From Herminiimonas sp. (lineage in GTDB: Bacteria > Pseudomonadota > Gammaproteobacteria > Burkholderiales > Burkholderiaceae_D): 64,000 nucleotides of DNA. Where the stretch lies: the NCBI GenBank assembly GCA_028292665.1, contig JAQGLW010000081.1:1-64000 (forward strand). Reading direction: 5' to 3'. Of this stretch, positions 1 to 1,692 are shown in pieces; within the stretch, counting starts at the first letter, position 1; each line of letters begins with the position of its first letter. The position numbers were made by a program, and so were the translations under genes. The notes under the pieces were generated by a model. That model saw only the letters and a list, made by a program, of their open reading frames with translations, made no database searches and was not told the DNA's origin.

Positions 1-1111
1 CGTCGTCTGCGGTCCGATATCGAACTTCTTCAGGTTCCGTATTTACAACTTCAGACTCTCCACCTAATCGGGTCGGAGTTGAATTGATAGTATCGGCGGC
101 ATTCGAATTGATTGAAGCCTGTGTGGAAATTCTCCATTGTGAAGACCGCCTCGTAGTCGTCGTGTTCGATTGAACAGTCCACCTATGTGGTGAGGGCGGA
201 TTGGCGGAAGTTCCGGTGATATCGGCAGCATTGCTTACCGGGCTAGCTGGAACCGGTTCAGCCGGAATCCTCATGGTTAACCGAGCTAGCGTGCTGCTCC
301 TCGATTGAAAGCTCCAATCAAGATGCGGCGGAGGTAGTGGGGGAGCGCTCTCTCTATCGCCATGATTATGACCATATTCCTGTTGAATACTTGGATACGG
401 TGCAGGTGTGTTCCCAGGGGACGCAGGAGGATTCCAAGGCCTTAGCAAGTGCGAATCGGGGCCTAGGTTGGTGGTGCTGCCGAACGTGTGCTGTTGAGTA
501 TCCCAAGGTGGCGAAGGAAAGGCCGTATGGGCGTTGTTGACCACACGGTTATAAAATGCCCCCGATTGGGTATCCCAAGGTCCCCAAGGTGATGCCGGAT
601 GGGCGTTGATCATAGGGGGGTAAAAAGATGCGCCCGGCTGGGGGAGCCAGGACGTTGGAGGGAGAGGCTGATTGACATTGGCCATAGGCGCGCTCGTTTG
701 ACGAGACGGTGAATACGGTGGAGGCCGGTCTGGCGGGGTTCCAACGTTATTAGCATCCCAAGACATCCACGGGAATGCCGGATTGGCGTTGGCCGCAAGG
801 AAATTAGCCTGATGCTGGGGCATCTCAAAGGCAACCGGTGGATGAACGCTCTGCTGCGCCCAATGAGCAATCACCGGCGGAGTATTTGTCGAGCGGCGTC
901 CCATATTAAATTTAAATTTAGCTTTAATGAAACCGAGATTGGTGTATCCATCCGTTGCCGGATGCTGCCCGCGCATCAGCGGCGCGCCATACCCGCTGCC
1001 GGACGCACTAGGTAGTGCATGGGTGACCGAACCGGCGGATGGACGAGCATCTTTCGGTTTGGGAAGCAAGTCCCTAAAAAACTGGTTGGGACGGTGTCCT
1101 TTGATTTCCAT
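1..1111 (-). CDS. Proline-rich protein of unknown function, N-terminal part (runs off the window)
   Basis: Reading the minus strand from the ATG at 1111 gives 370 codons without a stop up to the window edge, so the C-terminus is missing. An in-frame stop lies just upstream (1130-1132). A weak purine-rich stretch about 10 bases upstream could serve as ribosome site. I recognise no family. The protein starts MEIKGHRPNQFF, has no hydrophobic signal peptide or membrane segment, and is rich in Pro, Ser, Asn and Thr from residue 75 on. It carries a PPPY motif (130-133), a PPLPPP run (257-262) and three copies of a W-D-containing repeat. Codon use differs from the dcw genes (many CTA, AGG, AGA, TTA, CGA), which suggests acquired or poorly expressed DNA. 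A host-directed or secreted protein is possible, but that is speculation. The lack of stops over 1.1 kb and the in-frame repeats argue it is real. Confidence 0.6.
   Translation of the reverse strand, partial: MEIKGHRPNQFFRDLLPKPKDARPSAGSVTHALPSASGSGYGAPLMRGQHPATDGYTNLGFIKAKFKFNMGRRSTNTPPVIAHWAQQSVHPPVAFEMPQHQANFLAANANPAFPWMSWDANNVGTPPDRPPPYSPSRQTSAPMANVNQPLPPTSWLPQPGASFYPPMINAHPASPWGPWDTQSGAFYNRVVNNAHTAFPSPPWDTQQHTFGSTTNLGPDSHLLRPWNPPASPGNTPAPYPSIQQEYGHNHGDRESAPPLPPPHLDWSFQSRSSTLARLTMRIPAEPVPASPVSNAADITGTSANPPSPHRWTVQSNTTTTRRSSQWRISTQASINSNAADTINSTPTRLGGESEVVNTEPEEVRYRTADD
494..790 (-). repeat. Three degenerate protein-level repeats, N-A-[HN]-x-A-x-P-x-x-x-W-D
   Basis: In the partial protein the motif occurs at residues 108-119 (NANPAFPWMSWD), 169-180 (NAHPASPWGPWD) and 193-204 (NAHTAFPSPPWD). 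These correspond to bases 749-790, 566-607 and 494-535. The last two copies are followed by TQ. The conservation is in this one frame, which supports the minus-strand reading over other frames. Confidence 0.6.
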
Positions 1112-1403
1112 TTTGCCGTGCTTTCTTTTCTATATTTTGAAATGTCCAAAGCCTTGAAATGAACGATCGGTCCGTTGTGCCGCAGAGTTTCATTTTGGGC
1201 AAGCCGGCCGTACGTCCAACGATTTTGGACAACGGTTATGGAGCGTGAGTGGATTTGCCGGACGGGAAGTTCCGTTTTTGCAGCCTGACCCGAAACATCC
1301 GGGACGGGCGAAGACCGGGCAAATGAAAAATCGGGAAGATTGAGGCCGGCTTTTGGAAACTCACAACAGCAATACGGGTCTTTTTAATTTGCGCCCATTC
1401 CAG

Positions 1404-1419
1404 TAAACACATGTGTTTA
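1404..1419. promoter_or_regulatory. 16-bp perfect palindrome, candidate operator
   Basis: TAAACACATGTGTTTA is its own reverse complement. It lies in the AT-rich spacer between the divergent proline-rich ORF and mraZ. The regulator is unknown. Confidence 0.35.
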
Positions 1420-1553
1420 TCTAAGGTCGAACTTTCACTATCAACGATAAGTGCTTAATTAATTTGGGAATTTTCTTAATATGAAGTTTCAAGTAAATGC
1501 GCTAAGTCCTTGACTTTATTGGAAAAATTGCTTTATGGCCCTCCTAATATTCC

Positions 1554-1582
1554 TTGACCGCAAATAGCACATCCTCTAAAGT
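1554..1582 (+). promoter_or_regulatory. Candidate sigma70 promoter of the dcw cluster
   Basis: A -35 element TTGACC (1554-1559) is followed after exactly 17 bases by TAAAGT (1577-1582), which matches four of six -10 positions. The -10 overlaps the first MraZ box, as expected for autorepression. Another TTGACT at 1510-1515 lacks a good -10 at proper spacing. Confidence 0.5.
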
Positions 1583-1615
1583 GGGCGACAGTGTGAAAAA
1601 GTGTTTTTTTGTGGG
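1581..1615 (+). promoter_or_regulatory. MraZ operator: four GTG boxes with 10-bp period
   Basis: GTGGGC (1581), GTGTGA (1591), GTGTTT (1601) and GTGGGA (1611) begin exactly 10 bases apart. MraZ is known to bind direct TGGGN repeats spaced by 5 bases upstream of its own operon. Boxes 1 and 4 match that consensus well and boxes 2 and 3 are degenerate. The array lies downstream of and overlapping the candidate -10, so MraZ binding would block initiation. Confidence 0.65.
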
Positions 1616-1692
1616 AGGCAATAGCAGTTATTGCCGGACAAAAACAGCTTGCCGCTATTACTACCAAAAGAGAAAAGCAAAGGGTCACCAGG

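What the first reader, a model, noticed from the sequence alone, without database searches (positions are those of the whole stretch)
1..1111. Unannotated proline-rich open frame at the window edge with non-core codon use
370 consecutive codons on the minus strand have no stop, and simple start-to-stop gene calling misses them because the 3' end is outside. The product has no signal peptide or membrane helix. It is Pro/Ser/Asn rich, has a PPPY motif and PPLPPP run of the kind bound by WW and SH3 domains, and uses codons (CTA, AGG, AGA, TTA) that are rare in the adjacent dcw genes. A host-directed or surface-exposed protein is possible, but no family is recognised.
Basis: partly seen in the sequence, partly recalled or inferred. 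Interest (0 to 1): 0.65.

Follow-up and report, generated by a model that had tools for sequence, protein, structure and literature searches.

The report
Truncated orphan proline-rich bacterial gene
At the very end of an assembled piece of a Herminiimonas-like bacterium's genome lies the first 370 codons of a real but unrecognisable gene for a floppy, proline-rich repeat protein, which looks recently acquired; nothing found so far shows that it acts on a host.

Summary
Window 1111..2 (minus) is a stop-free frame of 370 codons, and base 1 is the start of contig C79, so the 3' end is missing from the assembly. It is not chance: 0 of 1000 simulated sequences match it, and it has strong 3-base periodicity and in-frame 24-residue repeats. 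Codon use is atypical: its adaptation index (0.50) and GC3 (0.50) are lower than in all 37 other window genes.

No relative was found in Pfam, NCBIfam, PHROGs, PDB, plasmids, phages, viral contigs, a scan of 84,980 species genomes, or HMMER searches of about 840 Burkholderiales genomes. The predicted protein is disordered (mean pLDDT 42).

Synteny with a Herminiimonas MAG places the gene between a DUF3096 gene (end of contig C43) and the conserved mraZ leader, which begins sharply at window 1404/1405. That gap is about 290 bp in the relative. This is therefore a lineage-specific insertion.

The host-directed reading is not shown. The proline motifs are only weakly enriched over composition, and the assembly holds no type III injectisome (only FlhA, no SctC). 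Two CesT-type chaperone genes elsewhere in the genome keep the idea open. Best call: an ordinary orphan gene, possibly the disordered N-terminal half of a secreted protein.

The parts
2..1111 (-). Open reading frame, ATG at 1111, 370 codons, no stop before the contig end: 5' part of an orphan gene for a Pro/Ser/Asn-rich protein
464..607 (-). Two adjacent 24-residue (72-nt) repeat units, NAHPASPWGPWDTQSGAFYNRVVN and NAHTAFPSPPWDTQQHTFGSTTNL (residues 169-216)
   Evidence: DNA repeat family D2, 71% over 72 nt in the same frame; protein alignment score 59 against shuffle mean 18.7, P about 0.0003
755..790 (-). Third, degenerate copy of the start of the 24-residue unit (NANPAFPWMSWD, residues 108-119)
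   Evidence: DNA repeat family D1, 78% over 37 nt
92..316 (-). Possible second repeat pair (W266-D297 and W311-D340, ..W[ST][FV]QS..SNAAD)
   Evidence: weaker: alignment score 41 against shuffle mean 22, P 0.003, chosen after inspection
713..724 (-). PPPY motif (residues 130-133)
   Evidence: sequence; P = 0.027 against shuffled composition
326..343 (-). PPLPPP run (residues 257-262)
   Evidence: sequence; P = 0.028 against shuffled composition
1112..1404 (.). 5' leader of the ORF, not conserved in any relative examined; start of lineage-specific DNA
   Evidence: blastn against about 90 Oxalobacteraceae mraZ loci
1405..1690 (+). Conserved mraZ leader/promoter region; sharp left edge of the core chromosome
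   Evidence: alignments from Oxalobacteraceae loci start at 1404/1405 in most loci

Best explanation
The frame is the 5' part of a genuine, lineage-restricted (orphan) gene acquired as part of an insertion between a DUF3096 gene and the mraZ promoter of an Oxalobacteraceae bacterium related to Herminiimonas. Shown: it is an open, coding-like, repeat-bearing frame with non-native codon use, no detectable relatives, a lineage-specific position, and a missing 3' end. Inferred: the 370 residues form an intrinsically disordered Pro/Trp-repeat region that works as an extended linker or multivalent binding arm, ahead of a C-terminal part that lies in the assembly gap. The most likely use is as an exported or effector-type protein, or its N-terminal delivery and binding region. 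I give about 0.35 to the export/effector step alone and about 0.85 to 'real orphan gene in a lineage-specific insertion'.
For: No stops in 370 codons where other frames average about 16. Period-3 signal 9.4. In-frame 72-nt repeats. CAI 0.50 against a minimum of 0.56 and median 0.69 in 37 window genes, and GC3 0.50 against a minimum of 0.56. No relatives in any collection. Core conservation begins at 1404/1405. Contig C43, reversed, matches the DUF3096-rnpB side of the same junction in L044, where the gap between the two conserved blocks is only about 290 bp. Disorder: mean pLDDT 42. Weak support for export: two CesT-type chaperone genes in the genome, one next to a racemase with a Ser/Pro-rich N-terminal extension and similarly low codon adaptation of 0.52.
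Against: No secretion signal could be tested. No type III injectisome is in the assembly: the best SctC match is far below the cut-off and the secretins are PilQ, GspD, MshL and three below every NCBIfam secretin cut-off; the only FHIPEP protein is FlhA. No chaperone gene lies next to this ORF in the DNA available. A single-sequence AlphaFold model cannot prove disorder. The C43-C79 adjacency is inferred from one close relative and not read directly.
Confidence: 0.55

Rival explanations
1. Decaying remnant: the frame is a 5' fragment of a formerly larger foreign gene (phage, island or effector) that is no longer functional and ends in a frameshift or stop just beyond the contig edge.
For: The 3' end is unseen; the insertion is lineage-specific; it has no relatives, so conservation cannot be shown; substitutions between the two repeat copies fall evenly over codon positions (9, 11, 9; 3 synonymous against 13 non-synonymous codon changes), so there is no sign of purifying selection within the repeats.
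Against: 370 codons remain free of stops, with an ATG 6 codons after the in-frame upstream stop; a drifting frame of this composition would lose openness quickly.
Confidence: 0.2
2. Type III-like effector of this bacterium: the frame is the N-terminal secretion/chaperone-binding and proline-rich part of a protein delivered into eukaryotic cells, with the catalytic C-terminus in the gap.
For: No signal peptide-like segment; disordered Pro/Ser-rich N-terminus; low codon adaptation like the racemase beside a CesT chaperone on contig C15; two CesT genes; PPPY and PxxP motifs mildly enriched.
Against: No injectisome in a 99%-complete assembly; no chaperone next to this ORF; motifs barely exceed composition; no effector family matched.
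Confidence: 0.2
3. Chance open stretch or assembly/binning artefact (contaminant end of a chimeric contig).
For: Composition differs from the rest of the contig; the ORF is at a contig end; GC-rich DNA has long chance frames.
Against: Simulated chance frames never reach this length; period-3 signal and in-frame repeats. The synteny break is placed in the intergenic DNA just left of the mraZ leader, not inside a gene, which fits insertion; a chimeric join cannot be excluded.
Confidence: 0.05

Closest known systems
Lineage-specific orphan genes (ORFans) in bacterial insertions
   Same: No detectable relatives, atypical codon use, restricted to one genome among those sampled, placed in a variable intergenic site beside conserved genes
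   Different: Repeat-bearing and at least 370 codons long; 3' end unknown
Ehrlichia tandem-repeat proteins (TRP32/TRP120), secreted tandem-repeat effectors that engage NEDD4L (PMC5768648)
   Same: Repeats in a secreted-type protein; PY-type motif as a possible handle for WW-domain proteins
   Different: No sequence similarity was detected by any search; TRPs are type I-secreted by an obligate intracellular pathogen, and TRP32 itself lacks a canonical PPxY; here no host, secretion route or binding is known
Proline-rich repeat effectors of the EspF / EspF(U) type (recalled, not tested)
   Same: Outline only: short non-repetitive N-terminus followed by Pro-rich repeats
   Different: Repeat length (24 aa with Trp against about 47 aa), no SH3 consensus enrichment, no sequence match to any PDB chain, no injectisome found

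Membership tests
Type III secreted effectors | Injectisome in the same genome (SctC, SctV) | tested here: not met
   SctC model below cut-off in all secretins, which are PilQ, GspD, MshL and three unassigned ones; one FHIPEP only, FlhA 896 bits over its cut-off; a gap in the assembly cannot be excluded
Type III secreted effectors | Cognate CesT-type chaperone next to the gene | tested here: inconclusive
   Two CesT genes exist on contigs C15 and C167, none in the DNA beside this ORF; the gap side is unseen
Type III secreted effectors | N-terminal secretion signal | not testable with these tools
   Would need a secretion reporter assay
Known effector, adhesin or phage protein families | Match to a curated profile | tested here: not met
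   No Pfam, NCBIfam or PHROGs match up to E=10
WW/SH3-binding proline-rich proteins | Binding motifs beyond compositional expectation | tested here: inconclusive
   PPPY P=0.027, PxxP P=0.018, PPxY P=0.16, SH3 class I P=0.47, class II P=0.12
Lineage-restricted orphan gene | No homologues in relatives and lineage-specific position | tested here: met
   best hits elsewhere (E down to 1.7e-4) are short and low-complexity, several with stops inside or overlapping longer unrelated frames

The most novel reading that the evidence does not exclude
A previously undescribed family of disordered Pro/Trp-repeat secreted proteins in Herminiimonas-like Oxalobacteraceae, exported by a route that uses CesT-type chaperones without a recognisable injectisome (for example the flagellar export apparatus).
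Probability: 0.05. Interest if true: 0.65.

Novelty: new member of a known kind. Interest (0 to 1): 0.25.

Why it matters
As it stands it is one more orphan gene in a variable site beside the division/wall (dcw) cluster. It would matter if the missing C-terminus carried an effector or toxin domain in an environmental Oxalobacteraceae bacterium. The scattered CesT-type chaperone genes without an injectisome in the same genome are the more testable oddity.

Tried and rejected
Relatives by protein: own genome, 60 relatives, the genus (only 1 genome held), 393 family genomes and 399 order genomes gave only itself plus weak short matches. Those examined were spurious: several have stops inside, or lie over longer unrelated frames. 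A pattern scan of 84,980 genomes and of viral contigs gave none, and plasmids and phages gave none. The fold search with the low-confidence model gave no match below E=2.6 and was not used.

Continuation of the ORF: contig C43 was identified as the probable left neighbour, but it starts at the DUF3096 stop codon and does not hold the rest. No overlap between C43:1 and C79:1 was found. 100 of about 398 contig ends were read for an open frame of similar codon use or proline content. None was convincing. The racemase frame at C15:1 is open at its 5' side and has similar codon use, but it sits on a 75-kb contig, which does not fit the C43-C79 adjacency.

A CAI for the C167 chaperone was computed on a wrong frame and is disregarded.

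Full report
Observation. The minus-strand frame at window 1111..2 is as described: ATG, 370 codons, no stop. The window begins at base 1 of contig C79 of an incomplete assembly (199 contigs, 4.33 Mb, 98.96% complete), so the gene is cut by the contig. It is not chance: the five other frames hold 11-22 stops, and Markov simulations of the same composition never reached this length. The period-3 signal is 9.4 against at most 3.9 in shuffles. A 72-nt repeat lies in frame, encoding two 24-residue units NAHPASPWGPWDTQ.../NAHTAFPSPPWDTQ... (P about 0.0003), with a degenerate third copy. Codon use is less native than in any other window gene: CAI 0.50 against a minimum of 0.56 and median 0.69 in 37 window genes; GC3 0.50 against a minimum of 0.56 and mean of 0.66; Leu CTG 1 of 16.

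Where it sits. MraZ in the window is 90-96% identical to Herminiimonas, Herbaspirillum autotrophicum and Paucimonas MraZ, so the organism is an Oxalobacteraceae member. Against about 90 Oxalobacteraceae mraZ loci, DNA conservation starts abruptly at window 1404/1405, about 290 bp before mraZ; everything left of it, including the ORF, is private. In the closest locus (L044, Herminiimonas sp. MAG, MraZ 96%), the region left of mraZ holds a DUF3096 gene and, further left, a stretch matching the C43 RNase P RNA gene. The window's own contig C43, reversed, carries the same block (DUF3096 Pfam match; RNase P) and ends at the DUF3096 stop codon. In L044 the two conserved blocks are about 290 bp apart. 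The window organism therefore most likely has an insertion of at least 1.1-1.4 kb plus an unassembled gap between DUF3096 and mraZ, and the ORF runs into that gap. The missing 3' part was not found in 100 sampled contig ends.

What it is. No family, structure, phage, plasmid, viral or genome relative was found. AlphaFold2 without an alignment gives mean pLDDT 42 with no domain, and the fold search gives nothing. The sequence has no hydrophobic stretch. It is best described as an orphan, intrinsically disordered, Pro/Trp-repeat N-terminal region of a foreign gene.

Is it host-directed? The motifs that prompted this reading exist, but given 15% proline they are only weakly enriched, and the SH3 consensus classes are not. 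The genome holds no injectisome: SctC is below its cut-off in every secretin, several of which are PilQ, GspD or MshL, and the single FHIPEP protein is FlhA. On the other side, two CesT-family chaperone genes are present. One is next to an Asp/Glu racemase with a Ser/Pro-rich N-terminal extension and similarly low codon adaptation, so effector-type genes in this genome are not excluded. Precedent for bacterial tandem-repeat proteins that engage NEDD4-family ligases exists (PMC5768648), but there is no sequence link.

Verdict. A real but ordinary orphan gene fragment in a lineage-specific insertion. Its function cannot be settled without its 3' end.

Noticed in passing
G000 contig C15:1-1925 (L203) and contig C167:138-611 (L206): Two CesT-type (type III chaperone family) genes in a genome without a detectable injectisome, both near contig ends; one follows an Asp/Glu racemase with a Ser/Pro-rich N-terminal extension and poorly adapted codons.
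   Followed up: partly
window 1405-1690: Unusually conserved non-coding leader of mraZ across Oxalobacteraceae, starting at a palindrome AAACACATGTGTTT and containing GTGGG-type repeats like MraZ boxes; the left edge of conservation is sharp.
   Followed up: partly
L203:2331-3737 (contig C15): PGA_cap/MslH-like protein (lasso peptide C-terminal Trp epimerase model, 240 bits, below its cut-off of 700) next to the CesT gene.
   Followed up: no
L030, L044, L046, L048, L054 upstream of mraZ: The gene neighbourhood left of mraZ differs between the Oxalobacteraceae loci examined (an 800-aa frame, DUF3096/RNase P, genes that look phage Mu-like, what looks like an ABC transporter; the last two by eye only), as if it were a frequent junction or insertion site.
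   Followed up: partly
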